Below are positions 33,197 to 54,532 of a stretch of 64,000 bases of DNA, in pieces; positions within the stretch are counted from its first letter, which is position 1; each line of letters starts with the position of its first letter. Source of the stretch: Strigamia acuminata (taxonomy: Eukaryota > Arthropoda > Chilopoda > Geophilomorpha > Linotaeniidae); the NCBI GenBank assembly GCA_949358305.1, contig OX442314.1, forward strand, positions 16,361,060 to 16,425,059, written 5' to 3'. A model generated the notes under the pieces. The model did not search any database, was not told the DNA's origin, and saw only the letters and a program-made list of their open reading frames with translations. The position numbers and the translations under genes are program-made.

Positions 33197-33206
33197 GTTA
33201 TCTTAA

Positions 33207-33236: not shown

Positions 33237-33295
33237 CTTGCAATTCCCTACTCTCTTCTCTTCACTTCTTGCAAGTGCTAGGTTTTGTTTGCATC

Positions 33296-36200
33296 ATGGA
33301 ATTTAACCACATTCAGTCTGAATTTGAAGAGTTGTTTATGGAGATTGAAGAATCTCTCTTTCCTCCTATTAACACACCTAATTCACTGCTTGATGTTGAT
33401 GATGAAGAAAATGGATCCAATGATTCTCCATGTTGGATTTACAATCATTCTCTGATTTATCCACTCTCATCGTCTACCATCATCAACCAGTCTCAACACG
33501 TGCAATCTCCAACCTGTGTCCTCCAATCTCAACCTGCATCATTTCAATCATGCAATCCATTGACATCATGTGAGTCTCCCGTTCCTCTCTTGATTAATCA
33601 TCAAATCCATAATCAAGTGGTGCAACATAATATTTGTGAATTTGAAGAGATGCTTACGGAAATTGAAGAATCTCTATTTCCTCAAGTTAACACGCCCAAT
33701 CCTCTACTGGAAGAAGAAAATGGATACAATGATTCTCCATGGATTTATAATCATTCTCCAATTTATCCACTCTCACCACCTACCATCATCAACCAGTATC
33801 AACACGTGCCATCTCCATCCTGCACCAATGCGTTTCAACATGTGCCAACTCCAACCTGCATCAATCAATCTGAATCTGCATCATCTCAATCGTGCAATCC
33901 ATCGATATCATGCGAGTCTCCAGTTCCTGTGTACCACTACCAACCAAATTTACACCAAGCAAGAACAAGCCGCATCGTCAATCCCCCATCTCCTATGACT
34001 TTAGTGCAACAAATTGGAGGTGGAGAGAAAGTACATTCGTGTGAGTACTGCAAAAAAAATTTTTCTTGTTTTTCAACTTTAAAAAGGCATCTTATTCATT
34101 CACATACTCTTGCTAAAAGCACATTCGCATGCGCAATTTGTACAAATATTTTTTCACGCAAAGATGCCTTGCTGCGACATGTTAAAAAAATTCACAATCG
34201 CAGCAAAGAGACATTTACTTGCAATGTTTGCAAAAAGTCTTTTTCTTCAAATAATAATTTACTTAAACACATGCAAGTTCACATTCATCCTTTACCCGCC
34301 GTTCCACATCCACAACCACTACCCTGCGATGATCCTTGTGTTGACGCATTAGAGGGAAACGTCAACACGTATAAAATTCCCGGTGATGATTGTGGTGATT
34401 TAAATCATTTTTTCATTCAACACCACACTCGAGTGAAACGGATCTTAAACTTCCAATTGATTAAAAAGAAAGCGGTAAAATATTATATCGCCGTTAATAT
34501 ACATTTCACTCGAACATCACAGAGTGGTGATACGGAAACCGTTGCATGTTTTCGAAGCATTTGCTATATTGCGCTCGTTGAATCGGATCTCGAGGACCAA
34601 TTATTGGAGGCGTACGAGAAAATTAAACGTTCTTGCGCCGAATTTCAACGAGATGGTAGTGGTTGGGTATTTGAAGCGGTGGTAGAGATGCATGTGAATA
34701 TTGGTAGATATCGCCCATTGGCTGGAAGATCTTACATCGCACTCCCCAAATTTTTAGCAGACAAAAAAGCAATAATAAATGTACAAAATCAAGATTCTTT
34801 GTGTTTTCTCTGGAGTGTTTTAGCTGCTCTGCATCCTGCACCTTCCCACCCTGAACGTGTTTCACATTATACCAAGTACCGAAACACTTTAGATTTAACC
34901 GGACTTTCATTCCCAATGACTCTTCAACAAATCCCCAAGTTTGAAACCATGAATTCTATTAGTGTTCATGTGTTTGGTTTCGAAAAAGAAGTGTTTCCCC
35001 TATACATTAGCAAATTGGAACATAAAACCCAAATAAATTTGTTACTTTTTGCTAATGATCAAACCCAACATTATTGTTGGATTAAAAATTTAAATAAACT
35101 GTTACATTCCTTAACACATCACAATGAATTAGCTCACTATTGTAAATATTGTCTGCATAGATGTTCGTCAGAACGGATACTAAAAGATCACTTGGAGTAC
35201 TGCTCAACCCATGGACTACAAAAAGTTAAATACCCCACCGATGAAACAAAATGGATGCACTTTACTGATTTCCATAAACAATTTAAAGTCCCATTTGTAA
35301 TATATGCGGATTTCGAGTCACTGCTCGTTAAAAATGTTGAAAAAGATGAGACAAGCAAAGTGCAAAAAGTGTCCAAGCACGTACCATCGGGTTATGCTTA
35401 TGCCGTTATCAATACGGAAGGTAAACTGCACCAACCTCCATCGGTATATCGAGGTGAAAATGCAGTTGATCATTTTCTTGATCATATTACTAAATTGGAA
35501 GTAGAGTTGGGAAAGCTTATGGCTTTAAATCTTCCAATGGATTTATCAAATGAAGAAAAATTGTTTATGGAAAGTGCTACATCTTGTCACATTTGTAATA
35601 AGACATTTTTAAAAAATGAAAAGAAAGTAAGGGACCATGATCATGCTACTGGCAAGTTCCGTGGCCCTGCTCATAATTTTTGTAATCTGATGTATCGCAG
35701 AACATCTAAACAAATTCCCGTTGTGTTTCATAACTTAAAAAATTATGATTCACATTTGTTAATGCAGGGAATTGGAAAGTATAAAGATCGTGAAATAAGC
35801 TGTATTCCAACCAACATGCAACGATATATTACTTTTTCACTCGGAAATCTTCGATTTCTCGATAGTCTGCAATTTATGAATGCATCTTTAGAATCATTGG
35901 TTGCTAATTTATTCAAAAGTGATCCAAACCAATTCCGAATAATGAATCAACATTTCAAACCTGATCAAATCGGTTTGTTATTACGGAAAGGTATTTTTCC
36001 ATATGAGTACATGGACTCTTGGATCAAATTCAACGAAGTCCAACTTCCTCCCATATCTGCATTTTACAGTACTCTAAGTGCGCAAAGTGTATCCGAATCT
36101 GACTATATTCATGCAAAGAAAGTGTGGGATAAATTCAATATCCTAAATCTCGGTGTTTATCAAGACCTTTATGTTTTGACTGACGTTTTGCTGCTAGCTG

Positions 36201-37720: not shown

Positions 37721-37903
37721 AAAGTGTTATTTATTTATTTATTTATTTTGTAAACAAAACTGTTACATATTTTTATTATTATTATATCATTATCTTATCA
37801 TGTAATTTATTTTGTAAATGAAATTATTATTATTATTATTATTATTATTTTTATAAAATAAAACCATTATTATATATATTATCGTGTCATTCTTTCACAA
37901 ACC
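37721..37903. other. Polinton spacer with ATT/TTAT microsatellites
   Basis: 183 bp between the polymerase stop and the PC4-like gene, made largely of TTTA and TTA repeats (for example 37827-37850), with AATAAA near 37857. Confidence 0.5.
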
Positions 37904-38290
37904 ATGGACAGAGCAGGATTACAGAAAAACCTGATGCTCTTATTTGAAAATCATAAATTATGGATTACGACTGGAAGTTTCTCTGTTGTTGGATGTTGTA
38001 TCGTTATTCTACAAATCATGATTCTGATGTACTCTCCTCCAACCTTAATCCAACCAACTGTGGATGTAGTGAAAATGTTGCCTGTATCCAATGGATGCAA
38101 TTCCACTTTTGATCTAGGAAATGGAAAACAACTAAATATTTGCAAACGTGGAGATGATGTAATATTTGATATCAGACAGTTTAGCAGAGCTGGTCCATCC
38201 ATCAAAGGAATTAATTTAAATTGGTATCAATGGATTAGATTAACTCGAGCAATCTCTTTTCTCCATTCGAATGTAACTATTGTTAAATAA
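37904..38290 (+). CDS. membrane-anchored PC4-like (ssDNA-binding coactivator fold) protein of the Polinton
   Basis: 128 aa. Residues about 23-43 form a hydrophobic helix (GSFSVVGCCIVILQIMILMY). From about residue 68 onward the sequence resembles the PC4/Sub1 single-stranded-DNA-binding domain: FDLGNGKQLNICKRGDDVIFDIRQF, then GINLNWYQWIRLTRAI, which aligns with the PC4 GISL...QW..L...I ending. The membrane segment plus PC4-like domain is an unexpected combination. Function in the element is unknown; single-strand binding during replication or transcription is an inference. The gene is convergent with the integrase, with only 52 bp between stops. Confidence 0.6.
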   Translation: MDRAGLQKNLMLLFENHKLWITTGSFSVVGCCIVILQIMILMYSPPTLIQPTVDVVKMLPVSNGCNSTFDLGNGKQLNICKRGDDVIFDIRQFSRAGPSIKGINLNWYQWIRLTRAISFLHSNVTIVK

Positions 38291-38342
38291 ACAAGTGCAT
38301 ATGCAATGATCGAAATATATCTTTATTATTTGTGTATACAAA

Positions 38343-39437
38343 TTATAATGGTGGGTTGTCTCGTAAGTCATCAGCGGGAATCCAGGAATTAAATTCATCT
38401 CCATAACCCATCCACTTTACAAAATATAATTTATTCGCACCTTTGCCTTTAGACTTTAATACTGTTTCTACAGCATACTCCGCATCCTTGGGTTTATTAA
38501 TTTTCTGCAACTCAAATTCATAAAATGTACCGAGTAAAGGTTCATCATTGTAATCTTTAAGCATATAGACAACTTCTGGTGGTCGGATTAATCGATTGGC
38601 AATATAATAAATTTGATGCGAATAGCTTCCCCTGTATCCCTTTCGGAAAACCACTTTTGATTTTGATATTCTAACACCATCACCAATATTAAACTTAAAT
38701 TTTTTATGTCTTTTATTTATTGTATCACCATATAAGTGGTAAAACACTGCCGGTTCTTTCTCTTTCGTAACATCAACAGGTTTCATTCCTAATGTTCGAT
38801 GAACGCTATGATTATATGAATCAATAAATGTTTGCAGTTGGTCAATATATCGATGTCTGCCGGTATATGTGAAATAAGTCCACATTTTCTGCTTTATGGT
38901 CCGATTTAATCTTTCACAAAGTGAACATTTAATATCATCATTTTCACTTGTAAAATGTTTGATGTTATTTTTTAGTAAGAATTCCTGAAAAGCTTTATTT
39001 AAGTATTCTTTTCCCTTATCGGTCTGTAGAAAAAGGGGTTTAGTCTTGGCACGTTTTAGAATTGTTTCAAAAGCTTTTATAATATGTTGCGCAGACTTTG
39101 TTGGTAAAGCTTCAATATACGCATATCGTGAAAATACATCAATGACAGTCATTAAATATCTATTTCCATCATTTTCCTTTGCTATGTTTCCAACTTCAAC
39201 CAAATCCGATTGCCATTGGTAATTAATAGATGGTACAATAGTCTTAGAGCGTTGAAACTTGTATCGAACTGGTTTATGTAAGGTATATGAGTCTAGTCCT
39301 TGTAACCAATCTTGAATCTCCTTTCTGGTAACTTGTACCCCCCGATTACGTGCAGCATGGAACAATTTATCTCGACTACTAAATCCGGCAGGATTTCTTG
39401 GATTAAAGTAGATATCTTTCAATTGTTGCTCTGCCAT
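38343..39437 (-). CDS. INT: Polinton retroviral-type integrase with chromodomain
   Basis: 364 aa. The catalytic core has the D,D-35-E-type triad: QSDLVEV, LQTDKGKEY and the Glu in LCERLNRTIK, followed by YNHSVHRTLGMKP. The C-terminus carries a chromodomain (YAVETVL...LYFVKWMGYGDEFNSWIPADDL), which may guide target choice by binding histone marks. The enzyme inserts the element and makes the 6-bp duplications seen at its ends. It is last in the leftward run of genes that starts at the ATPase. Confidence 0.93.
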   Translation of the reverse strand: MAEQQLKDIYFNPRNPAGFSSRDKLFHAARNRGVQVTRKEIQDWLQGLDSYTLHKPVRYKFQRSKTIVPSINYQWQSDLVEVGNIAKENDGNRYLMTVIDVFSRYAYIEALPTKSAQHIIKAFETILKRAKTKPLFLQTDKGKEYLNKAFQEFLLKNNIKHFTSENDDIKCSLCERLNRTIKQKMWTYFTYTGRHRYIDQLQTFIDSYNHSVHRTLGMKPVDVTKEKEPAVFYHLYGDTINKRHKKFKFNIGDGVRISKSKVVFRKGYRGSYSHQIYYIANRLIRPPEVVYMLKDYNDEPLLGTFYEFELQKINKPKDAEYAVETVLKSKGKGANKLYFVKWMGYGDEFNSWIPADDLRDNPPL

Positions 39438-39485
39438 ATGTTTTTCTAACTTTGTTCTATGCTCCTAGTTATACTGTTTATTTCT

Positions 39486-40370
39486 TTATTTTTTTTTCTT
39501 TTTTTGTGAACCGGAACTTGGTGTTTTATATTTGAATAAACTCTCGTCTTGATCTCGTTGAAATCTTAAAGATTTGTTTGGTGTTCCGTAATGTGCCCAA
39601 GTGTTCTCTAAGTCTGACAGCTCTTGATCTTGATCTGATAGTGTTTGATTATTGATGATGGAGTCATTTCCACTCAATGACTCTCTATGAATGTCCCTAG
39701 TAATTGTGGGAGTTGAAGTGCTCATCGGTCTAATTAATTCCTTTCTTAAATTCTTGTTTATAATGTATTCTTTTGGTACATTTGAATCAATCAAAATTTT
39801 AATATACTCTGACTGACCAATCGGAATTACATTTTGCTTCGGGCGGTTTCTTATGGTATAGTTTATAAGATCAGCTTTGGTTGTATTTGGAATTTTTACT
39901 CCATCTATAATCATTTCCGATAGATTGCTCCATTTCAACCTTGGATTCAAATTCATAACTTCCATTAACGCAATAGCTTGTTTCTTTTGATCTTTTGACA
40001 TTTTATTCAACATTATTTTATCCAATGGTTGAAGAACAAATGGCGATTGAGATGTGGATAAGTGCGAAACAATTGGTGGTGGTGATTGAGGTGGAGATGC
40101 GGATTGAGTTGGAGGTGATATAGTAACAGTTTTTGGTGCATTTAATTGTTTAATTAGCTTTTGTTTAAAGTTTCCAAATTGCGATTGAAGTGTCGATATA
40201 AGTTTAGCTTTCATTTCATCATTCAAGTTTGCATCATTGAAAATTTCCTCTATTGACGATTCAATCTTTTGCAATTTTTGATATTGCGGATCAATATCAT
40301 CATAGTTCTTTTTCGAATATTGTAAAGATGACATCATTTCCTGCGGTACTAAAACCATTTTCCTAGCCAT
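39486..40370 (-). CDS. Polinton conserved structural/unknown protein (294 aa)
   Basis: Not assigned to a known fold. Visible features: helical N-terminal part, a Pro/Ser-rich linker (SPPTQSASPPQSPPPIV), a central globular region (KIMLNKMSKDQKKQAIALME, LLKW-like positions) and a C-terminal polar tail ending in seven lysines. Its start codon overlaps the stop of the upstream 111-aa gene by 8 bases (ATGGCTAG), so it is probably translated by reinitiation or from the same message. Its place between ATPase/core-like and integrase genes suggests a virion or packaging role, but that is inference. Confidence 0.7.
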   Translation of the reverse strand: MARKMVLVPQEMMSSLQYSKKNYDDIDPQYQKLQKIESSIEEIFNDANLNDEMKAKLISTLQSQFGNFKQKLIKQLNAPKTVTISPPTQSASPPQSPPPIVSHLSTSQSPFVLQPLDKIMLNKMSKDQKKQAIALMEVMNLNPRLKWSNLSEMIIDGVKIPNTTKADLINYTIRNRPKQNVIPIGQSEYIKILIDSNVPKEYIINKNLRKELIRPMSTSTPTITRDIHRESLSGNDSIINNQTLSDQDQELSDLENTWAHYGTPNKSLRFQRDQDESLFKYKTPSSGSQKKKKK

Positions 40371-40698
40371 TTTGTTTACTAATTAGTTTACCTACTAATG
40401 CTCCAATAATTGGGGCGAGTAGTTGCGGTAAAAATCCACCAGTTTGAATGACCAAGTTCCGTCTTTGTTTGAATGAAGATGTAGGAGTGGCCAATTTTCT
40501 TAACAACCTTCTCTTTCGATAAAGTGATTGTTTCTGATTTGCTCCTAACTTAATTGTACCTTTTATAATGTTTAAACAAATTTCACAGATGGTTTTACAG
40601 AAATCATCGTTAGAATGTTTGAGAAAATCCTTGATTTGTCTCTTATTTAAATCGGGAATGGCCCGGAGCACATTGGCGTGACGTCTTACTCGTTTCAT
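40363..40698 (-). CDS. Polinton small basic core-like protein (111 aa)
   Basis: 111 aa, basic (MKRVRRHANVLRAI, LYRKRRLLRKL), ending with a glycine-rich hydrophobic tail (TGGFLPQLLAPIIGALVGKL). Small proteins with this N-basic and C-hydrophobic layout recur in Polintons and related adintovirus-like elements and resemble adenoviral core peptides. It lies 9 bp from the ATPase and overlaps the next gene by 8 bp. Confidence 0.75.
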   Translation of the reverse strand: MKRVRRHANVLRAIPDLNKRQIKDFLKHSNDDFCKTICEICLNIIKGTIKLGANQKQSLYRKRRLLRKLATPTSSFKQRRNLVIQTGGFLPQLLAPIIGALVGKLISKQNG

Positions 40699-40707
40699 TG
40701 GTGGAAT

Positions 40708-41307
40708 CTATATGTAAACTATAGTATATTCATCCGGAAATATATTAGTCTTCACTCTTTGATCTTGGGGTGTATCCGGTTTCAAATCAATTAATAAATA
40801 CCCAAAACTTTGCGCTGTTGCATCGTTAAATGCTGATATGAAAAATTTACCTCGCTGTGGGAACATTTGACTCCCTACTTTTGCGATTTGATTCATATCC
40901 CTTGGATTTCGAAAAAGGATTAAATAGTGACTATTTAAAGATAAAGTTCGTTGATATTTGCTTTGATGAAATATGTTTTGGCATAAATAAAATACACTAG
41001 TGCTCGTATGGTGCGAATATTTAGTCCACAATAACCCAATCTCTTGATTTAAATTTTCCATTTGATCGTCAATGATGAAAAGCTTTCTCGTTGATGAATC
41101 CAAAGTCTTTAAATTGGGTAATCCTTCGTGGAACTGCACATTGGGAAATTCGATATACCACTGTTGCCATATTGAATAGTACCAGCAAATATCTTGTGGG
41201 GGTGGATCAATCATTTTACTCGCATTTCGGATAATTTTCTTACATATCTCCGTTTTGCCCGTACCCGAACTTCCAGAAATAATAGCAGTAAATGGATGAT
41301 GAAACAT
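40708..41307 (-). CDS. ATP: Polinton DNA-packaging ATPase (FtsK/HerA-like, A32 family)
   Basis: 199 aa. Walker A is GSSGTGKTEICKK and Walker B LFIIDDQM. The compact single-domain size and the following YLCQNIF and LILFRNPRDMNQI segments are typical of Polinton packaging ATPases, which pump DNA into the capsid. It is the first gene of the leftward run and is divergently transcribed from the minor capsid gene across a 53-bp spacer. Confidence 0.92.
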   Translation of the reverse strand: MFHHPFTAIISGSSGTGKTEICKKIIRNASKMIDPPPQDICWYYSIWQQWYIEFPNVQFHEGLPNLKTLDSSTRKLFIIDDQMENLNQEIGLLWTKYSHHTSTSVFYLCQNIFHQSKYQRTLSLNSHYLILFRNPRDMNQIAKVGSQMFPQRGKFFISAFNDATAQSFGYLLIDLKPDTPQDQRVKTNIFPDEYTIVYI

Positions 41308-41360
41308 TGTTCATATAAGAGGTGATGTCACCTCAATGATGCAATCAGAAGTGAGCAGGC
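41308..41360. promoter_or_regulatory. bidirectional promoter spacer with palindrome
   Basis: The 53-bp gap between the divergent ATPase and minor capsid start codons contains GAGGTGATGTCACCTC (41319-41334): 7-bp perfect arms around TG, with a CRE/AP-1-like TGATGTCA core. Symmetry and position suggest an operator or shared transcription-factor site controlling both gene runs. This is inference. Confidence 0.5.
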
Positions 41361-42491
41361 ATGGATCCGGAACAGAGTTTCTATGTGAGTCTTCCATCAA
41401 ATAGCAGCTTAGATTATTACCCGAATAATACATTGACGGAATTTCATACGCAATTACCATCATATATTAATTTAGATGAAAATTGGGAAGTGGGTCTGGT
41501 TGGATTCCTTTATCCAAGAAGCTGGAGTACTGCTCTATTGCCCCGAGGTGCCGATTTTCGAATACTGAAGAATGAAGTCAATGCAATCAAATTTCCACCA
41601 TTCAAATTTGTGGATGCATCCCTACCGCAGGATAAGCTAATATCCGAGTTTCTTAACTTTTTAAATAATAATTTAACATCTCCAACCAAGAAAGATGAGA
41701 AAGTTAAAGATCTTGACAAAGCATTGCAAAAATTAGGAATTAAATTTCACTGGAATTCCACTCGTTTAAGATTTGAAATAATAATTATGCCTAAGTTTCA
41801 AGTCATGATCCCGCAGAGGCTGGCATATGTGTTAGGTTTTGTGAAAGATGAAGATGATGATTTTTACGCTGATGAATCCAAGACGGCTCGTGATTCTCCA
41901 CGTCTCACACCAAATCTTATCAATGATAAAAATTGGAATTTATCAATTGAAAAGGAGACTGATGGTAAACAGAAACAAAGCTTGAAACCTGGAAATTATT
42001 CGGGACCTGATCAATTAGTAGATGCTTTAAATCTTAAAGCACTCGTAGTTATTGATAAAGCACCATTTAGTTTTAATATATCATCAAAGAAAATTGAGAT
42101 TAACTTGCCAATTAACACCAAGTTGGTTCTTGATAAAGCCTTGGCATCAACTCTCGGTTTTAATGATTTGCGTGTAATTACAAAAACAACAGAAGCTTTT
42201 CATAAAATGGATGAACAAGTTGGACTATATCATATGTACTTGTATTGCAATCTAATACAACCAAACATTGTTGGGGATACTTTAGCGCCACTGTTAAGAA
42301 TAATACAGATTCAAGGAAAAGAGCGAGGACAATACATCTCCCAAACTTTTGAAAATCCACATTATAAACCGCTGGCAAAATTGCAATTTGAATCCATACA
42401 AGTGCTTATAAGGGGTGACACCGGAGAAAAAGTACCATTCGAGTTTGGACGTGTCGTTGCAACGTTACACTTCAGGAAGAGATTGGATTGA
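41361..42491 (+). CDS. Polinton minor capsid (penton-like) protein
   Basis: 376 aa. It is recognised mainly by position (start of the capsid run, beside the packaging ATPase), size and the N-terminus: FYVSLPSNSSLDYYPNNTLTEF, then ...ENWEVGLVGF..P.SW, which is the usual opening of the single jelly-roll penton proteins (PX of Polintons). In virions the protein sits at fivefold vertices. The frame is intact. Confidence 0.8.
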   Translation: MDPEQSFYVSLPSNSSLDYYPNNTLTEFHTQLPSYINLDENWEVGLVGFLYPRSWSTALLPRGADFRILKNEVNAIKFPPFKFVDASLPQDKLISEFLNFLNNNLTSPTKKDEKVKDLDKALQKLGIKFHWNSTRLRFEIIIMPKFQVMIPQRLAYVLGFVKDEDDDFYADESKTARDSPRLTPNLINDKNWNLSIEKETDGKQKQSLKPGNYSGPDQLVDALNLKALVVIDKAPFSFNISSKKIEINLPINTKLVLDKALASTLGFNDLRVITKTTEAFHKMDEQVGLYHMYLYCNLIQPNIVGDTLAPLLRIIQIQGKERGQYISQTFENPHYKPLAKLQFESIQVLIRGDTGEKVPFEFGRVVATLHFRKRLD

Positions 42492-42495
42492 CAAG

Positions 42496-42978
42496 ATGAG
42501 ATTTCACTATGAACTAAACCCTCAAATCTGCATGGATAGATATTGCTCAAATCATGCGCAAATAGGTGGAGCAGATCTTCCTATATTTGTAGGATCTCGC
42601 TATCAACAAGGACATGGTTTGGGTTCACTTATAAGTGACGCATTTCGAATTGTAAAGCCTTTTGTGAGAAGTGGAGCGTTGGATGCAGCAACGTATGGTT
42701 TGAAGAGAGGATTAGACGTAATTTCCGATATGCGTGTAAACAAGAGAAAATTTGGAAATGCATTTAAAGATCAGGTTGTTCGAACCAAATCGGATTTTTT
42801 AAAAAAGATTGGTGTACAGAAAGGAGGCAAACAAAAGCGGATGGATGGTAAACAAAAGAAAAGACGTGTAACCAAACAAAAGAATCAGTCTAAGAGACGA
42901 ACTCGACCAAAGAAGAACGTGCGTAGGAAGTCCTGCAAAAGGAAAACTTCACTTCTTGGACCTGACATATTTGATTAG
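42496..42978 (+). CDS. Polinton basic core/pVI-like protein
   Basis: 160 aa from Met 42496, which lies 4 bp after the minor capsid stop; the longer open frame to 42415 would overlap that gene. Features: a short hydrophobic motif YQQGHGLGSLISDAFRIV, then a helical stretch and a very basic tail (KQKKRRVTKQKNQSKRR...). The YQ.GHG.G motif is common in small Polinton and adintovirus virion proteins, compared with adenovirus minor core proteins. DNA condensation or membrane action is inferred. Confidence 0.75.
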   Translation: MRFHYELNPQICMDRYCSNHAQIGGADLPIFVGSRYQQGHGLGSLISDAFRIVKPFVRSGALDAATYGLKRGLDVISDMRVNKRKFGNAFKDQVVRTKSDFLKKIGVQKGGKQKRMDGKQKKRRVTKQKNQSKRRTRPKKNVRRKSCKRKTSLLGPDIFD

Positions 42979-42980
42979 CC

Positions 42981-44318
42981 ATGCCGCAATTTCCCCATGA
43001 ATCATCTGCCGAAGGCGCGACTCCAGAACTAGACATTTTTGGATTACCACTCACACAAATAACAGTGGAAGATAATTATTGGAGTGAATACCATCCAATT
43101 ACAGCCGTAACTGCAGGACAGCCATTAGATTTTTCAATCAAGGGTACTGCTGATACGTACATTGACTTGAGTCAAACATACTTGTTACTAAATGTAACTG
43201 TAACCGATGGTGCTGGGGCTGTAATTACAAAAACAGCTAAGGTTTCTCCTACAAATTTATTCCTACATTCATTGTTCAGTCAAATAGATGTTAGACTAAA
43301 TGATAAGCTAGTGTCAGCTTCCGATTCAAATTATTGTTATAGAAGTTATCTCGAAACAATTCTCAGTTTTTCAAATGATGCCAAAAAGAGTTATAAAACA
43401 GTGGAGATGTATTATGAGGATACAGGAGGATCATTTGATGATTTAGATCCAACAGTAGCAGATTTTAACGAGGAGTTTGGAATTTATAAACGATATCATC
43501 GACTCATGCAGGATGGTGATTGTGGAAAATTACAGATGTTTGGAAGACTTCACTGCGATATCTTTTCTCAACCACATTATCTCATAAATAATGTTGACTT
43601 GCGAATTACACTTACTAGACAAAATGATGCATTTAGTTTAATTTCAAAAGAGGCAGGGGCGGCCTATAAAACAGTTATAAATGATGCAACTTTATTTGTA
43701 AAAAAGATAGTTCCTAGCGCTAGTGTACTCTTAGCTCATCATCAAGCATTAGAGCAACGTAATGCGAAATATCCCATTAGAAGGGTAGAAGTTAAGACAT
43801 TTACAATTGCTACAGGATCGCAAACTGCTATGATTGATAATGCATTTCTCGGTCAATATCCATCCCGATTGATTATTGGTCTTGTGAAAAACACTGCCTA
43901 CTGCGGATCATATGCCAGTAATCCGTATAATTTTGAAAACCAAGGAATAAATTTTCTTCAAGTATTTTTGGATGGAAAAGGAGTACCAATGAGTCCATAT
44001 AAGCCAGATTTTGCAAAAGGACAAGCAGCTCGTGAATTTATTACCTTATACCAAACTATGAATAGAGCAGATAAAGATTTAGGATTAGGCATTTCGTATA
44101 CTGATTATTGTTTAGGCGGAAATGTTTTATTTGGATTTGATTTAACGCAAGATGCATCCGCCGGTCAACCACATTTGAATTTAGTAAAACAAGGAAATGT
44201 TAGGATTGAAATGAGATTTAATAAAGCCTTAACTGCAACCATAACCGTATTAGTACTGGCGGAATATCAATCCATACTGGAGATTGATAGAGCGAGGAAT
44301 ATCATTACTGAATTTTAA
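42981..44318 (+). CDS. MCP: Polinton major capsid protein (double jelly-roll)
   Basis: 445 aa, the expected size of a Polinton double jelly-roll capsid protein (PY). The N-terminal segment IEYHPI-like (SEYHPITAVTAGQPLDFSIKG) and DLSQTYLLLNVTVTD, followed by SLFSQIDVRLNDKLVS, is the characteristic opening of this family. The centre holds YKRYHRLMQDGDC and NVDLRITLTRQNDAF. Capsid homotrimers build the icosahedral shell. It starts 2 bp after the core-like gene and is followed after 8 bp by the protease. Confidence 0.9.
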   Translation: MPQFPHESSAEGATPELDIFGLPLTQITVEDNYWSEYHPITAVTAGQPLDFSIKGTADTYIDLSQTYLLLNVTVTDGAGAVITKTAKVSPTNLFLHSLFSQIDVRLNDKLVSASDSNYCYRSYLETILSFSNDAKKSYKTVEMYYEDTGGSFDDLDPTVADFNEEFGIYKRYHRLMQDGDCGKLQMFGRLHCDIFSQPHYLINNVDLRITLTRQNDAFSLISKEAGAAYKTVINDATLFVKKIVPSASVLLAHHQALEQRNAKYPIRRVEVKTFTIATGSQTAMIDNAFLGQYPSRLIIGLVKNTAYCGSYASNPYNFENQGINFLQVFLDGKGVPMSPYKPDFAKGQAAREFITLYQTMNRADKDLGLGISYTDYCLGGNVLFGFDLTQDASAGQPHLNLVKQGNVRIEMRFNKALTATITVLVLAEYQSILEIDRARNIITEF

Positions 44319-44326
44319 CTCAAGCT

Positions 44327-44851
44327 ATGAACACGCTCCAAATAACGGAGATTTTATCTAAGAATTCAGTGACGAGGCAAATTTTTAAAGGTGTATATCC
44401 AATTGATTTGCTATCCTCATCGCAACAAACAAACAAAACATGCGCGTTTGTTGTAAATACTCATCCCCATACAAAACCAGGCGAACATTGGGTAGCATTG
44501 TTTCGAGATGAGAAAGTACCCGGTGCGATTGAATATTTTGATTCGTTCGGTAAACCACCAGCGAAAGAAATTACTGCTTTTATTCAAAATATTGGATGTA
44601 AACTAACCAACAGGATTACTCAAACCTATCAATCACCGTGTAGTCTCGCATGTGGATATTATTGCATTTATTTTATTTATAATAGGTGTAAAGGAAAAAG
44701 CTTTGATTATATAAAAAATCAATTTAATCCAAGAAATCCATATTACAATGATAAAAAAGTTACAAAATTTGTTAAACATATTTTTAATTTTAAGATGTCA
44801 ACATTGTATGATAAAAATTGTATCGTACAAATAAGTAAAACAAAGAAATAA
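44327..44851 (+). CDS. PRO: Polinton adenain-like cysteine protease
   Basis: 174 aa. The catalytic set of C5/C48-type proteases is visible: His in GEHWVALF, Asp in EYFDSFGKPP, Gln region TYQSPCSLACGYYC with the nucleophile Cys. These proteases mature capsid proteins. It ends the rightward run, and AATAAA overlaps the stop region at about 44848. Confidence 0.92.
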   Translation: MNTLQITEILSKNSVTRQIFKGVYPIDLLSSSQQTNKTCAFVVNTHPHTKPGEHWVALFRDEKVPGAIEYFDSFGKPPAKEITAFIQNIGCKLTNRITQTYQSPCSLACGYYCIYFIYNRCKGKSFDYIKNQFNPRNPYYNDKKVTKFVKHIFNFKMSTLYDKNCIVQISKTKK

Positions 44852-44880
44852 AGTAATTGTTACAAAATCTGGTGTTTCTA

Positions 44881-45207
44881 TCAACCTGGTGTATCTAACC
44901 CATAGATGGATTTATAAATCAACCACTCTTCATTCAGTCCTTTTTCAAAAGTAATTCTCATTAATGGACAATAGGCATACCAAGAATAATGTTCCAAAAG
45001 AGGTATGTCACCACGTTTCCACTCTTTTAATCGACCGAGACAGTAGACGCACTCAACATGATCATTTTCACCCAAGTATTTGAATCCAGCACGGGCTAAG
45101 GTGGAAGGGTCGGCGATGTGTCTAGAAACAGGCCAGTTGCGAAAGGTTTGCTTCCGTTCCCGGATTCGCCGCATCATCTCCGTTCGCATTTTCATTTCCC
45201 GTTCCAT
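44881..45207 (-). CDS. Polinton BIR-domain (inhibitor-of-apoptosis-like) protein
   Basis: About 108 aa from Met 45207 (frame open to 45255). A single BIR domain fills the protein: RKQTFRNWP, LARAGFKYLGENDHVECVYC, GRLKEWKRGDIPLLEHYSWYAYC. The zinc ligands C-x2-C, H and C are all present and spaced as in type I/II BIR domains. There is no RING finger. IAP-like proteins with BIR domains can block caspases; whether this one does is not shown. Its 5' end overlaps the end of the exonuclease-like gene in another frame. Confidence 0.82.
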   Translation of the reverse strand: MEREMKMRTEMMRRIRERKQTFRNWPVSRHIADPSTLARAGFKYLGENDHVECVYCLGRLKEWKRGDIPLLEHYSWYAYCPLMRITFEKGLNEEWLIYKSIYGLDTPG

Positions 45208-45781
45208 GAAGGAGGGCTTCAAGATCGTCGAGATAAGAATGGTCTTGAGTTTCAATACACCACTCCTTAAAGCAAAGACACTCAGCTTGAGGACAGTGCA
45301 TTAACTTGGAGGGAAGTAGGGATTCATGAAGGTGACATAAAGGTTTTGAATCAGGATCAAGATTAAAATGAAGGTCCTGATATTTTGGACATCCCAATGA
45401 TTCCAGGTCGAGGTATGGAATGTCACATTTGATTAACCAATTTTTTTCAATTTGGCCTCCTTTGAATGCAATAATTGGTCTGTTGGCTTCCTGAACACAA
45501 TTTATATGTAAAGATGTGAGGATAAAAGGAATCCAGCTTTGAGGTAGATCATCAGGACCATCTTCAAACTTCATACCGTGGATATTACGTTTTAACCAAG
45601 CAGCAACTTTTTGCCATTTTGGTTCTAGTTTGTCAAATTGTCCAACACGAAAGTGATAACTTAAAGTAGAATCCTTGTATAGAAAACACACTCCGAGCTC
45701 CTTGAGTAGAAAGTCGGGACCAAACTGGAATCCCTCAAAGTCAATAATACAACCTACGTTTTTTAATTGTTCCGAATTCAT
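45122..45781 (-). CDS. Polinton DEDD-like exonuclease protein (putative)
   Basis: 219 aa from Met 45781 (frame open to 45811). The N-terminus has IIDFEGFQFGPDFLLKELGV, with the D-x-E of a DEDD/DnaQ-like exonuclease. Later comes IAFKGGQIEKNWL...IPYLDLESLGCPK, which has the layout of the second and third acidic motifs. The C-terminal part is Cys/His-rich (HCPQAECLCFKEWC). Assignment to the DEDD fold is by motif pattern only. The gene sits between the AlkB-like and BIR genes and overlaps the BIR frame by about 86 bp. Confidence 0.6.
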   Translation of the reverse strand: MNSEQLKNVGCIIDFEGFQFGPDFLLKELGVCFLYKDSTLSYHFRVGQFDKLEPKWQKVAAWLKRNIHGMKFEDGPDDLPQSWIPFILTSLHINCVQEANRPIIAFKGGQIEKNWLIKCDIPYLDLESLGCPKYQDLHFNLDPDSKPLCHLHESLLPSKLMHCPQAECLCFKEWCIETQDHSYLDDLEALLHGTGNENANGDDAANPGTEANLSQLACF

Positions 45782-45794
45782 TCTAAAACACGAA

Positions 45795-46500
45795 TTAAAA
45801 TAAATATTCATTTATAATAATATCATTAAATAAATGGAACTTACTTTGAATGATGTTTCTAAAAGTTAAGTTGATTCGCGGATGAAGTGCAGAAATTTGC
45901 TTTGGAAGACTGTGATACCAAAAACGGTTTGTAGGTTGGTGCATTAGCAGAATGCTACCGTGTTCCAACGCGAGAGAAATCGGCTTTGGTGGTAAGACTG
46001 AGTTGCGAATAGTATACTTTCGCTTAAGAGACACGTGACGAAGAACAAAGTTTCTGTTTTGTCCTAGAGACAGGCTCGCTATTGGTGCGTTTGGATGAAG
46101 TCCCACCTCATCGTCTCGATGTTCACCAATAGTCTGGTTGCCATTTGCATAACGATTAACGAGAACAAAGTTAAATTCATGTCCGGTAACAAACTGAACG
46201 GCATCTCGTAAATCACGCAAAAGAGGAGTCCAAGTTTTAACCGGTAAAGTATTACCAGAAAATGAATATTTCAATCCATCATCACCAAATGCAACTTGTT
46301 GTCTCGGTATATTGATCCACTTGCCATAAATCTTGATTTGACTCACAAGTCAGTCTACCTGTATAGTATGTGATTTCATTTTCCAGCTTTTGAAATGTAG
46401 AATCAGCTACTTCTTTGTTGAAAAGAAGCCCATACTGCAAGTGTAAATCCTGCTTGGGAATATCTTTCCAACAAACAGGCTCTATTGTCGTCTTCTCCAT
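45795..46500 (-). CDS. Polinton AlkB/ALKBH2-like 2-oxoglutarate/Fe(II) dioxygenase, frameshifted
   Basis: Two overlapping frames (46500-46282 and 46346-45795) together make an ALKBH2-like protein; a one-base shift at about 46350-46370 separates them. The downstream frame has no ATG near its start, so the upstream part is needed. Dioxygenase residues are intact: GEHRDDE (His and Asp iron ligands), PIASLSLG, LEHGSILLMHQPTN, WYHSLP (second His) and PRINLTFR (2-oxoglutarate Arg). Family members remove alkyl lesions from DNA bases. The frameshift may be a real inactivating mutation or a sequence error. A potential donor (CAAA|GTAAGT, about 45835) pairs with an acceptor at about 45783. TATATATA at 46532-46539 is a likely promoter. 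Confidence 0.85.
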
Positions 46501-46569
46501 GTTTTTTCATCCAAAAGAAACATCAGCTCGGTATATATAGCAGTTAACCTATTCTGCTGTCCAATCGGA

Positions 46570-46880
46570 GACATGTCTAAACTTGCCCCCCCAAGCGGTT
46601 TCAACAAATTATAGCAGAGGACTCCTCCCCTTTGCACCGCTCACTTCCTGTTTTATCCCCCCTTCCAAACAGTGCCATTGCTGAGACATGTTGAAACTTG
46701 TCTAAAATGGTTTCAACGAATCATAGCAGAGGAGACATTTGCACCACTCACTTTCTGTTTTATCCTCCCTTCCAAACAGTGCAATTGATGAGACATGAAA
46801 CTTGTCTAAAATGGTTTCAACGAATCATAGCAGAGGACAACGTTGCACCGCTCGCTTCCTGTTTTATCCTCCATTTCCAC
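46570..46880. repeat. three about 105-bp tandem repeats upstream of the AlkB-like gene
   Basis: Three units share GGTTTCAACGAATCATAGCA-type sequence followed by TTGCACCGCTCACTTCCTG and TTTTATCC...CCTTCCAAACAGTG (blocks at about 46631, 46739 and 46845). They lie in the region where promoters of the leftward accessory genes are expected. Confidence 0.8.
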
Positions 46881-47081
46881 TAATATAACACAAACACCCT
46901 TATTACAACTTAACTTATTTGTTAAAGAAATTAATGAAAGAAAAAAGATGTATTCTTATTCAAACAAATTTTATTTATATAATTAACACAAAAAAAAAAA
47001 GAAATAAGTACAAAAAAAAAAATTTAAACTAAAGTATACAATTTCTATTCTACCAATACAAATAACAAATTAACTATAAAT
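46881..47081. other. Polinton A/T-rich spacer
   Basis: About 200 bp with A-runs between the repeat array and the downstream stop codon; probable 3' UTR of the leftward gene at 47082-47738. Confidence 0.4.
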
Positions 47082-47738
47082 CTATTCATCATCATCAGTA
47101 TCGACAGGTACACTGGTAGGTTTTGAATCGACATCCTCATCAGAAGAATCCACAAAATGCACACCAGGAATGGGTCTCTGATATGGTTTCTTCTTCATTT
47201 GCTTTCTCTCCTTTTTCTTTTTTAAAACAATTGGAGCTTGAGATGTGGTCGGAGTAACAAATGAACTTGCAGTTGTTTCCTCGGGAATAGCTGGAAATTG
47301 AAGGTTGCTCTCTTGCAACTTTGACAGAGCTTCATCGATGCCCGAAAATATGGATGATCGCTGCTTCTTGAGTTGACGCCATTGTTCATACGAAAGCAGA
47401 ATAAACTTCTCTGGCGCAAATGAATGACATATCATCAAAGATACATCATCAGTTTTCGACTTGGAAATAGTGACTAAAACACCACCTACACACTCAATGG
47501 TTGATGATTTCTTGGTTTTTAAATTCGCAATTTCACTCGTTATCTGCTTCCAATGTTCCACAAAATCATAAAATGTCTTAACGTTCATGCACATACCATC
47601 ACGAGAGGGATACAGCTTTCCGTTCGGGTATGTCAGAAATCGTCTTAGGTGGATGTAGACTCCAGCTAGAAATGGATTGACTTGACAATAGATCTCCCCA
47701 CCAAGAGAGTAGATCCCGCTGCTTGAAGTAGTAGTCAT
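47082..47738 (-). CDS. Polinton PC4-like transcription cofactor-type protein
   Basis: 218 aa from Met 47738; the frame is open to 47786, but that first Met lies within the TATA box. The N-terminal part (GGEIYCQVNPFLAGVYIHLRRF, then PSRDGMCMNVKTFYDFVEHW) matches the PC4/p15 coactivator pattern of strands followed by a helix. A second stretch ends FILLSYEQWRQLKKQRSSIF, also PC4-like, so the fold may be duplicated. The C-terminus is basic then acidic (KKKKERKQMKKKP, VDSSDEDVDS). A DNA- or transcription-related role is inferred. It is the gene closest to the right terminal repeat and mirrors polymerase at the left. Confidence 0.6.
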   Translation of the reverse strand: MTTTSSSGIYSLGGEIYCQVNPFLAGVYIHLRRFLTYPNGKLYPSRDGMCMNVKTFYDFVEHWKQITSEIANLKTKKSSTIECVGGVLVTISKSKTDDVSLMICHSFAPEKFILLSYEQWRQLKKQRSSIFSGIDEALSKLQESNLQFPAIPEETTASSFVTPTTSQAPIVLKKKKERKQMKKKPYQRPIPGVHFVDSSDEDVDSKPTSVPVDTDDDE

Positions 47739-47794
47739 GGCTTGTTTGTGAAAGAAATGGTGAGTATCCCAAAATGCGAGTTGCATTTATACAG

Positions 47795-47850
47795 GATAAC
47801 TCCTCCCCTTTGAACCGCTCACTTCCTGTTTTACCCTTCCTTTCCATCAC
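47795..47850 (-). promoter_or_regulatory. dispersed copy of the Polinton promoter-like repeat
   Basis: The 34-bp block CTCCTCCCCTTTGAACCGCT plus CACTTCCTGTTTTA matches 46621-46654 with one mismatch. It lies immediately upstream of a TATAAA (minus strand, 47791-47786) preceding the 47738 start codon. The same block stands upstream of the AlkB-like gene, so it looks like a shared promoter module of the element. Confidence 0.6.
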
Positions 47851-47863
47851 TGACATTGATGAG

Positions 47864-48249
47864 TACCCAATAATATCTCTCCTTTGGTTAAAAGTAGCCT
47901 AAGGGTCCTTTGAAAATTTGGGAAAAACAACAACAAGGTGCTTAAGGAAAGAAAAACAAGGGGCCTTTGAAAATTTGGGAAAAACAACAACAAGGTACTT
48001 AAGTAAAGAAAAACAATAACAAATAATAGCCTAGGGTACATTGATTGAATGATAAGACTGATTGATTGAAGCAATTAGTCACCCCCACTTAGCTCTCCCC
48101 TTATCTCCCCCTCTCCTTATCTCCCCCTCCCGTTATCTCCCCCTCCACTTATCTCCCCCTCCCCTTATCTCTCCCCCCACTTAACCCTCACCACCCCCAC
48201 CCCCCCTCACCACCAACCACTGGCCCAGGATCCCCACAAACCCACTACT
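47864..48249 (-). repeat. Polinton right terminal inverted repeat
   Basis: Inverse of the left arm, including the G/A-rich minisatellite (here C/T on the + strand) and the two 57-bp repeats. It ends ...CCCACTACT at 48249. Confidence 0.95.
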
Positions 48250-48255: not shown

Positions 48256-48675
48256 CGAGATGAAGGCTGAATACATTTCATAAACTCCTAAGAGACCATA
48301 CGAATAGTTACATGTTGGTAGAGATACGTTGGTCATAAATGAGAATCTAATAAATAAATCATCAATCAAACACATCGTGGACATTTGGATTTGTACATGG
48401 GTTTTCTGGATCATTTATACGATAATCTTTAACAAATCATCAAAATTATTGGAAATTAAATCAAGAAAAATCACTGAGTGCTTATACTTTTGTGTGACCT
48501 CCAAACGGAATTGAGTAATGCAGCTATTGATTCGCATTAACCGAAAAAAGCTAAATAAACAACAATAACAATTTATTTCTGTTACATTCACATTTTCTTG
48601 TGCCTGAAAATTGTCTCCACATCGATTCAAAAGTGATTGAAGTAAAATTATAGTAAAAATATTTGCTCCACTCAA
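48256..48675 (-). pseudogene. right fragment of a third DEG/ENaC paralogue, split by the Polinton
   Basis: Minus-strand pieces match gene 1 exons 8-11 in order: ...FTIILLQSLLNRCGDNFQ, a degraded exon-9 segment, a truncated exon-10 segment (DPENPCTNPNVHDV then stop) and FMTNVSLPTCNYSYGLLGVYEMYSAF of the last exon, which runs into the Polinton end. The exon-10 part lost its second half. The last exon continues at 32811 on the far side of the element. Confidence 0.8.
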
Positions 48676-49007: not shown

Positions 49008-49054
49008 ATCCCGCTTAGCCAAAATCAACCACTCCGACTTAATAACATTTCAAA

Positions 49055-50254
<1,200 letters not shown>

Positions 50255-51535: not shown

Positions 51536-54532
51536 ATGGTCAAAGCAAGAAAAATTATCAAGCAACTCTTGCACAGCCACGAGAAAAATAATTGGACATC
51601 TACAACCGGTTTAAGACAGGTGTCTAATCCTAATTATCCAATTTGGTTGCGTGGCGTTTGGTTGATGATTTTCATCACGAGTTTAGCTCTATGCTCGTAT
51701 CAAACGTACAATAGAGTAATGCATTACCGATCGGGTCCAATTGCAGTCGATGTTCGATTCGTTGAAATCACCAGATTTCCTTCATTCACGGTTTGTTCGC
51801 AAGATACTCAAGAAATGATAAACTACAAGCAAAAACATTTTCTCGACGACAACATATTTTCCACATTTACTTGCATGAATCAACTTTTGTATGTGATGGA
51901 TCAAGTCCAGAATGTAAATGTAGATGAGTTGTGGAAACTAACCAATACGGCTAACATCGTCTCATCGGCAGTATTGAAACGGGTAAGATACAATCGTTTT
52001 CTATTTTAAAAATTTTGCATTCGAGATTTCTCGTTTAAAATTGCTGTGTGGTAAATCCAACAAAAGTTCGCCAAGTAAACCCAGCTCATACTATTTTTTT
52101 AGTTAAATAATATCACAACAGTTACTCCAAAGCAAGTAATTGCACCAATGGGAATATGTTCAGCATTTCATTTAGGTATGGTTAACTATCTTTTTTCAAA
52201 TTAATAGTTACGGTACAATTAATTTTTAATACGTTGTAAAACCCAGATGGTGAAATGAAACATCCTACTTCAACTCAATTTATTCTGAAATTGGCAAAAC
52301 TACCAAACAGCTGTGAAACTTCAATAATTTCAGTAAGTAACTTAAGTTAGTTTATAAAATTAAATTAAATTATGTTCTTTTTAGGGCAGTGCACATGAAC
52401 CTGGAGAACATTCACCAGACATTCGCAATCTATTTGGATTTTCTCCATTTCAAATCATCTACATTACTCTAGTCTACAAACAGGTATATTTCCTACATTT
52501 AAATTATGACCATAAACTAAAATCGTCATTTTACTTTTATTTTCCAGTACATCTTTTTAAATTCTACAAAAAATCCCTGTGTGGATCATACGACCTACAA
52601 CGAATGCCAGTTAAAATGCTTATTGAAAATGTACACCAAACATCAATTTCCATGCAGGTATTTATTTTAAAAAATCAAATAATTAAATCCAACACCACTA
52701 AGTTTTCTCTAGGTTCCCATTCATGCCAAGTAAATTAAATTTAGATTTATGCACCACAAAAAAAGACGTTACCAAAGAATTGTACGCCAAAGCAACAAAC
52801 ACCTTCATCAGCACAAATCCAACACAAGATTGCAACTGCCTTCGACGTTGCAACAGAATCGTTTTCGAATTCTCTCTAACCAATAACGACATGCATCAAA
52901 ACGAAACAACATTCAACTTGATTCTTAGAAACAAACAACTTTTATCAGTAGAAGAGCGGCTTGCCTTCGATTTCATATCCCTACTCGGAGACTTTGGCGG
53001 CAATTTAGGCTTATATTTCGGATTATCCATTCTCTCTGCAGTTTACTACGTGCAACAATACATAGAATGCCTCGATGCCCGAGCTAAAGTCAACAGTCTG
53101 CGGAGAAAACATCCAAAAGCCTACCGTTTTCTCGCCCACATTTTCAACAAAGAAATGAAGAAAAGAGAGAAAAATATCTTTTCCAAATACACATTTCAAA
53201 GACACCCTCATTGCCTCGTTTCACTTTTGCTATTGGTTGTCACAATTTATTTACTAACGATCCGCGTATTATTCTACATTTCTGAACCAACCCAAGTAGT
53301 GATCAACGTTGTCGAAAACTCGACCATGAATTTCCCATCACTGACACTCTGCGGTGAAAGCAGGAGCTATTCCAAACTCAGAAAAGCATATGCAAAAAAA
53401 GACGCAACAAAGCACTACTGCGAAGCCAACTTTTGGGATTTCTTTGACAAAAATCTAACCGCTCAAGAGATATGGGCCTTCACAGATATCACTGACGTAA
53501 TTTCTAACAGAACCGAAGAATTTGCAAAGGTATATCACAGCCGTCTGCAACTTATTTTTTTTTACTAATAAAACACCCACCATTTCCACACAACAGGCGA
53601 ATGTTGGTATTTTATCACTAAAAGCAGAGAAACAAACAGCGACCAATACCCCAACAGGCCGCTGTTCACATTTCAAAATAGGTAAATAATTTCTAACAAA
53701 AAATAAATAAATAAATCGATCATCACATTAGGTGAACACACGTTTGCTGGAACCGCTACACTGTTTGCCATTTTGTTGCAACAAAAACAGTGTCAACCAG
53801 AAGCCTTATCGTACATTACGGAAAACGATATGGAGCCAAACATTATTTACCGCACTCCTGTAATCGTCGGTGGAAATGCCGCTATCCTTCTTACAGCCAA
53901 AAAGGTATTACTTTACACACCCCAATAATCTAAAAAAAACCAAAGATATTTAAATATTTAGCCTAATAAGTCTAATTTCCTAGGTGACTTACCACAAAAG
54001 CTACAATAACCCATGCGTAAGTCCTAAAAGCGCTTTAAAATGTGAAACTCGGTGCCTACAAAGAAAACTGAACGAGAAACTGCAATGCAGGTAAGCCTAC
54101 CAAAATTAATTCTATATAAAAAAAATACAGAAGATAATTGTCTTCAGACTCCCATACATGAAAAACATTCGCTATCCAATGTGCACCTCTTCAAAATCAG
54201 CGCTATTAGCCCAACTTACATTTAAAGATGTTTTTCTAGACAAAAAATCATGTAATTGTACTAAATCTTGCACCACCGTTATTTACGACACAAACTGGTA
54301 TTTCGAACCCCATGATCATTGGTTAATGACAATGTACGTAACGATTTTTATTCACAACACAGTCGAATATATCAACGAGCTACCTCATTACACACATGTC
54401 CAATTAATGTGCGATATTGGCTCCATCTTAAGTCTCACTCTGGGTTTATGCATTCCAGTTATATTTCTCACTTTGCAGAATATTACATTTTCCACTTGCA
54501 GTAAAATACTTGCAAAAAAACACTCGAAATAA
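51536..54532 (+). CDS. double-unit DEG/ENaC (pickpocket-like) channel protein, gene 2
   Basis: Ten exons (51536-51982, 52103-52175, 52247-52332, 52385-52483, 52548-52657, 52713-53529, 53597-53681, 53732-53904, 53984-54090, 54148-54532) give 793 aa. Unit 1 runs from TM1 (WLRGVWLMIFITSLALCSY, about residues 42-60) to TM2 (LGDFGGNLGLYFGLSILSA, about 362-382). After a cytoplasmic linker of about 55 residues, unit 2 begins with TM1 (VSLLLLVVTIYLLTIRVLFY, about 441-460) and ends with TM2 (CDIGSILSLTLGLCIPVIF). Cys motifs CNCLRRCNRIVF and CNCTKSCTTVIY precede the second helices. The 817-bp exon 6 joins the units in one frame. The extracellular loops are short for the family. The exon plan matches gene 1 except that exon 8 here is two exons there. 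The N-terminal HG gating motif usual in the family is not seen. Confidence 0.88.

What the first reader, a model, noticed from the sequence alone, without database searches (positions are those of the whole stretch)
51536..54532. Two DEG/ENaC channel units concatenated in one 793-aa reading frame
Seen: a single 817-bp exon contains the Cys motif and TM2 of one DEG/ENaC unit, a linker of about 55 residues and the TM1 of a second unit, with no stop, splice site or start needed between them. All ten exons join in phase to 793 codons. Known: DEG/ENaC channels are normally trimers of single two-helix subunits. Inferred: this is a natural tandem dimer, so assembly must break or rework the trimer rule (for example three double subunits as a six-unit assembly, or one linked pair plus a single subunit). 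I know of no described channel of this type in insects.
Basis: partly seen in the sequence, partly recalled or inferred. Interest (0 to 1): 0.88.

Follow-up and report, generated by a model that had tools for sequence, protein, structure and literature searches.

The report
Natural double-subunit sodium-channel-family genes
Two genes in this presumably insect DNA each encode two DEG/ENaC-type channel subunits joined into one protein, although channels of this family are usually described as three separate subunits, so nature seems to have made a linked pair of the kind that laboratories build to fix subunit number.

Summary
Gene A (51536-54532, +) splices from ten exons into one 793-aa frame with two DEG/ENaC (Pfam ASC) units; one 817-bp exon carries the end of unit 1, a linker of about 47 residues and TM1 of unit 2, without a stop. 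A and B align end to end at only 27% identity (E 1e-68). Unit 1 groups with unit 1 and unit 2 with unit 2, so the pairing, most simply the fusion, predates their duplication. The four units share 10 invariant cysteines and a repeated intron pattern. Neither frame has a stop; about 49 and 58 are expected without selection. Gene B's linker has no Met, against a separately started unit 2. The linker letters are not conserved, and two units have altered pore motifs. Ten literature searches listed no natural DEG/ENaC tandem dimer, but insect proteins, transcripts and the host genome could not be searched, and assembly is untested. Most likely the pair supplies two of three subunits of a trimer. A new variant of a known kind.

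The parts
51536..54532 (+). Gene A, ten exons, 793-aa protein with two ASC (DEG/ENaC) units
51536..52657 (+). Gene A exons 1-5: TM1 and much of the extracellular domain of unit 1 (exons 51536-51982, 52103-52175, 52247-52332, 52385-52483, 52548-52657)
52713..53529 (+). Gene A fusion exon, 817 bp: Cys motif and TM2 of unit 1, linker (residues 391-437), TM1 and start of the extracellular domain of unit 2
53597..54532 (+). Gene A exons 7-10: rest of unit 2 to the stop (exons 53597-53681, 53732-53904, 53984-54090, 54148-54532)
27106..32331 (-). Gene B, paralogous double gene, 11 exons, 808-aa protein; exons (high to low) 32331-31819, 31746-31668, 31603-31518, 30426-30331, 30269-30163, 29077-28285, 28092-28011, 27946-27867, 27814-27719, 27657-27551, 27493-27106
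28285..29077 (-). Gene B fusion exon, 793 bp: TM2 of unit 1, 42-residue linker without Met, TM1 of unit 2, no stop
48268..48672 (-). Gene C, 5' part of a broken partial copy of the 3' end of a gene-B-like gene (unit 2 only)
32750..32807 (-). Gene C, 3' part, cut off from the rest by the mobile element
32812..48249 (.). Mobile element of about 15.4 kb inside gene C: inverted repeats of about 390 bp (97.7% alike), 6-bp target duplication, integrase with chromodomain

Best explanation
Shown from sequence: the single open frame, two ASC units in each protein, and the same arrangement in two diverged paralogues. Inferred from the exon layout: two neighbouring single-unit genes fused when the DNA between them was lost, joining the last exon of the first in frame to the first exon of the second; most simply this happened once, before A and B duplicated. 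Inferred from family topology: the linker lies in the cytosol, where the C end of one subunit and the N end of the next both lie, so no topology has to change. Inferred, untested: the pair fills two of the three places of a trimeric pore, and the third is filled by a single subunit or by one unit of a second double protein, which fixes the 1:1 ratio of unit 1 to unit 2. It would conduct cations as a sensory or epithelial channel.
For: Complete 793- and 808-codon frames, 0 stops against about 49 and 58 expected. A/B collinear BLASTP over 819 columns, 26.7% identity, E 1.2e-68. 4 of 4 units pass the Pfam ASC cut-off. Quartet A1+B1 | A2+B2 best under LG and WAG, alternatives p-SH 0.009 and 0.004; diagnostic columns 10 against 2 and 3. 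Intron phases 0,1,0,0,2 occur twice in gene B, and in gene A with one loss; three intron positions fall in the same alignment column in 4 of 4 units; 10 cysteines are invariant. The gene B linker has no Met. No AATAAA or ATTAAA lies between TM2 and the end of either fusion exon. Cytosolic N and C ends in the family: passage of PMC9822975. Linked ASIC subunits with 19-residue linkers make functional channels (passages of PMC10329638), and a table row printed (PMC4529235) gives activation and amiloride values for a two-unit ASIC1a fusion.
Against: No transcript or protein evidence. The linker sequence is not conserved between A and B (score no better than shuffled, p 0.25; codon-position identities flat at 0.36/0.45/0.38). 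Gene A has a Met at 420 in the linker that could in principle start unit 2, and AATAAA signals in the two introns after the fusion exon (53567; 53702-53710). Pore motifs are partly altered: A2 reads GLC and B1 NLC where GxS is usual, and no unit has a full HG motif, so some units may not be pore-competent. TM2 of unit A1 misses the hydropathy threshold. Gene B has one GC-AG intron and an acceptor that looks weak by eye. The four-unit tree has very long branches and no outgroup. No other species could be checked.
Confidence: 0.8

Rival explanations
1. One fused protein is made, but it does not work as part of a trimer: doubles assemble with each other into a complex of an even number of units, either two doubles as a four-unit channel or three doubles as two linked trimers.
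For: An even number of units follows naturally from a double. Passages of PMC4529235 report a mainly homotetrameric ASIC1a at the cell surface, so the trimer rule has been disputed by crosslinking.
Against: The four best structure matches list 3 chains per entry, and PDPNaC1 is reported as a homotrimer (abstract). Nothing in the sequence tells how the units pack.
Confidence: 0.15
2. Two separate proteins are made from the locus, by an internal promoter, internal start or early polyadenylation, and the continuous frame is incidental.
For: Gene A has Met 420 before TM1 of unit 2, an AATAAA in the intron right after the fusion exon (53567) and three overlapping ones in the next intron (53702-53710); gene B also has such hexamers in later introns and one in a later exon. 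The linker sequence is not conserved.
Against: The gene B linker has no Met. Both paralogues keep the frame open through the linker (chance about 0.07 and 0.02 at their composition). A stop after TM2 of unit 1 is absent in both, and the intronic signals of gene A would leave a piece of unit 2 on unit 1.
Confidence: 0.08
3. One of the two units is no longer a channel part but a regulatory or chaperone domain; for example the unit without GxS only tethers or modulates.
For: Each gene has one unit with GxS (A1 GLS, B2 GVS) and one without (A2 GLC, B1 NLC). Unit 2 has lost the region of the HG motif in both genes (by eye).
Against: 10 cysteines and the G..L.L core of TM2 are kept in all four units, and membrane helices are predicted or, for TM2 of A1, placed by alignment. 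The structure-solved relative listed as Broad-range thermal receptor 1 reads GIC at this place in the printed alignment, and PDPNaC1 lacks a canonical HG motif yet conducts (passages).
Confidence: 0.2
4. Assembly or annotation artefact: two genes joined by a misassembly or by a wrong gene model.
For: Wrongly fused gene models are common in insect genomes (recalled, not tested).
Against: The fusion lies inside one exon with no intron or gap between the units, the window has no N, and the same kind of join occurs in a paralogue at 27% identity.
Confidence: 0.03

Closest known systems
Insect pickpocket (PPK) DEG/ENaC subunits
   Same: ASC family match, two membrane helices per unit, cysteine-rich extracellular domain, multi-exon genes near each other. 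Clusters of pickpocket genes are reported in crickets, with an independent class V expansion in Tribolium castaneum (passages of PMC8203789).
   Different: As I recall, and as the introduction of PMC9822975 describes the superfamily (two transmembrane domains per member, passage), described members carry one unit per protein; A and B carry two. No unit has the full HG motif. No insect PPK sequence could be compared, except that Pickpocket 26 appears in the structure list at E 0.026.
Myriapod channels BRTNaC1 and PDPNaC1
   Same: Closest sequences among solved structures: entries named Broad-range thermal receptor 1 (taken as BRTNaC1, recalled) E 3.4e-18 and PDPNaC1 E 4.5e-11 with gene A; 1.9e-24 for unit B2 with the former. 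The former has Cys in the GxS place; PDPNaC1 lacks a canonical HG motif.
   Different: Single-unit chains of 421-431 residues in the solved entries; PDPNaC1 forms a homotrimer (abstract).
Engineered ASIC concatemers
   Same: Subunits joined head to tail by a linker in one polypeptide (passages of PMC10329638, and PMC4529235).
   Different: Made in the laboratory; those join three subunits and so match a trimer exactly, those join two, three or four copies of one subunit. Here the join is natural, with two different units and a linker of 42-47 residues.
Natural internal repeats in other channels (two-pore-domain K+ channels, TPC, Nav/Cav; recalled)
   Same: Evolution by fusing repeated channel units in one chain.
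   Different: Those belong to four-fold pores, where two or four repeats divide evenly. Two units do not divide into a three-unit pore.

Membership tests
DEG/ENaC (Pfam ASC, PF00858) | Sequence match to the family profile above the curated cut-off | tested here: met
   4 of 4 units above 23.6 bits: 91.2, 56.4, 87.8, 60.1
DEG/ENaC (Pfam ASC, PF00858) | Two membrane helices per unit around a large extracellular domain | tested here: met
   Hydropathy above 1.5 finds four helices of four in B but three of four in A; TM2 of unit A1 falls below that threshold and is placed by alignment with B1 and the ASC profile
DEG/ENaC (Pfam ASC, PF00858) | Conserved extracellular cysteines | tested here: met
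   10 cysteine columns invariant in 4 of 4 units
DEG/ENaC (Pfam ASC, PF00858) | G/SxS selectivity motif in TM2 (named in a passage of PMC8536179) | tested here: inconclusive
   Met in 2 of 4 units (A1 GLS, B2 GVS); A2 GLC and B1 NLC differ. A solved relative reads GIC
DEG/ENaC (Pfam ASC, PF00858) | HG motif before TM1 | tested here: not met
   Read by eye: units 1 keep a Gly (TTGL, IPGL) without the His, units 2 lack the region. PDPNaC1 also lacks a canonical one and CeDEGT-1d is said to lack it (passages), so it is not strictly defining
DEG/ENaC (Pfam ASC, PF00858) | Trimeric assembly and amiloride-sensitive cation current | not testable with these tools
   Needs expression; the structure prediction of the fusion exon was too poor to use (mean pLDDT 38)
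DEG/ENaC single-subunit pickpocket proteins | One ASC unit per polypeptide | tested here: not met
   Two ASC units in one frame in 2 of 2 complete genes in the window
Insect PPK family, a given class | Place in the PPK tree | not tested

The most novel reading that the evidence does not exclude
An old, presumably insect lineage of naturally concatenated DEG/ENaC channels, kept fused since before the A/B duplication, whose two-unit chains build either a trimer of fixed two-plus-one make-up or a pore with an even number of units, making it the first natural covalently linked subunit pair in a trimeric channel family.
Probability: 0.5. Interest if true: 0.8.

Novelty: new variant of a known kind. 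Interest (0 to 1): 0.64.

Why it matters
How many subunits a DEG/ENaC channel has, and in what order, has been studied largely with artificial concatemers and solved structures (recalled; examples), and at least one study argues for tetramers (PMC4529235, passages). A natural double subunit that has lasted through deep divergence is an experiment done by evolution: if it forms a trimer, a third unit must be recruited or one unit left out; if it forms a four- or six-unit complex, the trimer rule has an exception. It also offers a natural way to fix a 1:1 pair of channel subunits.

Tried and rejected
Protein-database search for relatives: not answered for gene A or for the gene B fusion-exon frame. 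Relatives by DNA: viral contigs with the gene A exon (5 pattern matches, 0 confirmed) and with the two-row A/B alignment (50 matches, 0 confirmed), and genome contigs, which is bacterial and archaeal (19 matches, 0 confirmed); these collections are not expected to hold insect genes, so the misses say nothing about other insects.

Structure prediction of the fusion exon from a two-row alignment gave mean pLDDT 38 and pTM 0.20 and is not used; no fold search was made.

Conservation of the linker sequence was tested and not found (p 0.25): the frame is kept, the letters are not. Codon-position identities (unit 1 0.44/0.59/0.31, unit 2 0.42/0.57/0.34) fit selection on protein, but the columns come from a protein alignment, which favours this pattern, and I did not compute a chance level, so I lean on the absence of stops instead.

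The likelihood-mapping run gave only the tree; support values come. In one search one gene B splice donor was set one base off, which broke the frame; the donor used keeps it open. In one search another splice site (exon 9 acceptor) was first set wrongly and was moved 10 bases, guided by similarity to gene A.

Literature: ten searches were answered (one search was for named channels only) and none of the listings showed a natural DEG/ENaC tandem dimer. Listings were capped at 10-20 papers, and several were noisy, since ASC has other meanings. The review of the insect PPK family (PMC8438182) is not held. Of eight papers opened I saw passages only, no whole text: PMC4529235, PMC9822975, PMC8203789, PMC10507113, PMC8536179, PMC12714832, PMC10699805 and PMC10329638; PMC10507113 and PMC10699805 gave nothing used here. 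That Pfam or InterPro lists other proteins with two ASC domains is a possibility that I recall but could not check.

Full report
WHAT WAS CHECKED. Gene A was rebuilt from the DNA. Ten exons between 51536 and 54532 on the + strand join through 9 of 9 GT-AG introns of 50-120 bp into 2382 nt, 793 codons and a stop. The first Met stands in the context CAACCATGG and is the first Met of its open frame. Pfam finds only ASC, the DEG/ENaC family, at 3.1e-39 with two stretches. Cut in the linker, each half passes the family cut-off alone. The 817-bp exon 52713-53529 holds the CNC cysteine motif and TM2 of unit 1, a linker that I place at residues 391-437, and TM1 with the start of the extracellular domain of unit 2.

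A SECOND DOUBLE GENE. tblastn of the two halves against the window gave hits on the minus strand at 27-32 kb. These form a complete gene of the same kind, gene B: 11 exons from 32331 down to 27106, 808 aa, nine GT-AG introns and one GC-AG intron out of ten. Its 793-bp fusion exon 29077-28285 reads from the cysteine motif and TM2 of unit 1 through a 42-residue linker into TM1 of unit 2 without a stop. BLASTP aligns A 5-791 with B 23-808 in one piece, 819 columns, 26.7% identity, E 1.2e-68. Some gene B splice sites were chosen with gene A as a guide.

WHY THIS MATTERS FOR THE FUSION. The two genes are far diverged (third codon positions 0.31-0.34 identical in the two units; chance level not computed), so unconstrained sequence would be full of stops: about 49 in A and 58 in B by base composition; 0 and 0 are seen, while the other frames of the spliced sequences hold 53 and 29, and 54 and 63. 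In a four-unit tree, A1 with B1 against A2 with B2 is favoured by about 16-18 log units; both other groupings are rejected (p-SH 0.009 with LG, 0.004 with WAG). The branches are very long and there is no outgroup. Ten alignment columns mark this split, against 2 and 3 for the other two. BLASTP scores agree: A1-B1 7e-49 and A2-B2 1e-32, against 4e-18 for A1-A2, 4e-16 for B1-B2, 1e-25 for A1-B2 and 2e-13 for A2-B1. So the order unit 1 - unit 2 existed before A and B separated. The simplest history is one fusion before the duplication; two separate losses of a stop at the same place cannot be excluded by the tree alone.

ANATOMY OF THE JOIN. Intron phases of gene B read 0,1,0,0,2 and again 0,1,0,0,2; gene A reads 0,1,0,0,2 and 0,1,0,2, having lost one. 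Three of these introns (phases 1, 0 and 2) fall in the same alignment column, 223, 290 and 326, in 4 of 4 units; the first introns lie within 13 columns of each other, and the third introns of the three units that have one within 5. The fusion exon is thus laid out like the last exon of a first gene joined to the first exon of a second, which points to loss of the DNA between two tandem genes (inference). Ten cysteines are invariant in the four units, so both extracellular domains look folded and kept.

WHAT SPEAKS AGAINST. The linker sequences of A and B are not detectably related (p 0.25), only open and of similar length. The chance of an open linker at its own composition is about 0.07 for A and 0.02 for B, so the linker alone proves little; the weight lies on its being flanked by two conserved units in both genes. 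Gene A has a Met at 420 that could start a separate unit 2, and AATAAA hexamers in the two introns after the fusion exon, at 53567 and 53702-53710; gene B has AATAAA hexamers in introns 5 and 8 and an ATTAAA in exon 10. Gene B has no Met in its linker, so a separately started unit 2 is unlikely as the ancestral state. Pore motifs vary: A1 GLS, A2 GLC, B1 NLC, B2 GVS, so each gene has one canonical and one altered unit, in opposite order. The printed alignment of the solved relative named Broad-range thermal receptor 1 shows GIC there. No unit has a complete HG motif (read by eye); PDPNaC1 also lacks a canonical one although it conducts (passages of PMC12714832).

HOW IT MOST LIKELY WORKS. In this family both ends of a subunit lie in the cytosol (passage of PMC9822975), so joining the C end of one to the N end of the next needs no change of topology. 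Linked ASIC subunits with 19-residue linkers are functional (passages of PMC10329638), and a table printed (PMC4529235) gives activation and amiloride values for a two-unit ASIC1a fusion, so a natural two-unit chain with a linker of 42-47 residues is plausible. I therefore hold that the pair fills two places of a trimer and that a third unit is recruited from a single subunit or from a second double. This last step is inference. The rival, an even-numbered complex, has some support from the same study, which finds mainly ASIC1a tetramers at the cell surface (passages), against the trimeric structures of the nearest solved relatives (3 chains per entry; abstract).

SURROUNDINGS. A partial third copy, gene C, lies between A and B: sequence 73-91% identical in DNA to the 3' end of gene B, unit 2 only, at 48672-48268 and 32807-32750 on the minus strand. 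It is split by a mobile element of about 15.4 kb (32812-48249) with inverted repeats of about 390 bp (97.7% alike) and a 6-bp target duplication. Of eight of its frames scanned, two have matches above the Pfam cut-off (an integrase with chromodomain; a 1515-aa frame with zinc finger and endonuclease VII), one has a sub-cut-off match (PC4) and five have none. I take it for a Polinton/Maverick-like element, from recall of such elements; a DNA polymerase is recognised by eye only. The cluster is therefore a place where these genes have been copied and broken.

LIMITS. No insect protein set, transcript or host genome could be searched (and ten busy calls to the genome search). In the open-access library I ran ten answered searches and saw no natural DEG/ENaC tandem dimer in the listings, which were capped. 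The paper most likely to mention one, on the evolution of insect PPK genes, is not held.

VERDICT. A new variant of a known kind: DEG/ENaC proteins in which two units are naturally concatenated and kept so in two diverged paralogues. What the channel looks like when assembled is open.

Noticed in passing
window 32812-48249: Mobile element of about 15.4 kb with inverted repeats of about 390 bp (97.7% alike), 6-bp target duplication, integrase plus chromodomain frame and a 1515-aa frame with zinc finger and endonuclease VII match; Polinton/Maverick-like (recalled), sitting inside a broken channel-gene copy.
   Followed up: partly
window 48268-48672 and 32750-32807, minus strand: Broken partial third copy (gene C) of the 3' end of a gene-B-like double gene, 73-91% identical in DNA to gene B.
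   Followed up: partly
window 54638-55480, minus strand: Uninterrupted 281-codon frame with a dual-specificity phosphatase match (2.3e-10), tail to tail with gene A about 100 bp away; could be a retrocopy.
   Followed up: no
window 49046-50254, + strand: Frames that look by eye like a trypsin-type serine protease gene with introns (GDSGGPL motif), between gene C and gene A.
   Followed up: no
window 31516-31517, minus strand: Gene B intron 3 uses a GC donor (GCAAGT), and introns 3 and 5 are about 1.09 kb each while the other eight are 52-192 bp.
   Followed up: no
gene A 51536-54532 (residues 364-385 and 754-775); gene B 32331-27106 (residues 385-406 and 772-793): The altered pore motif sits in unit 2 of gene A but in unit 1 of gene B, so the two double genes changed opposite units.
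   Followed up: no
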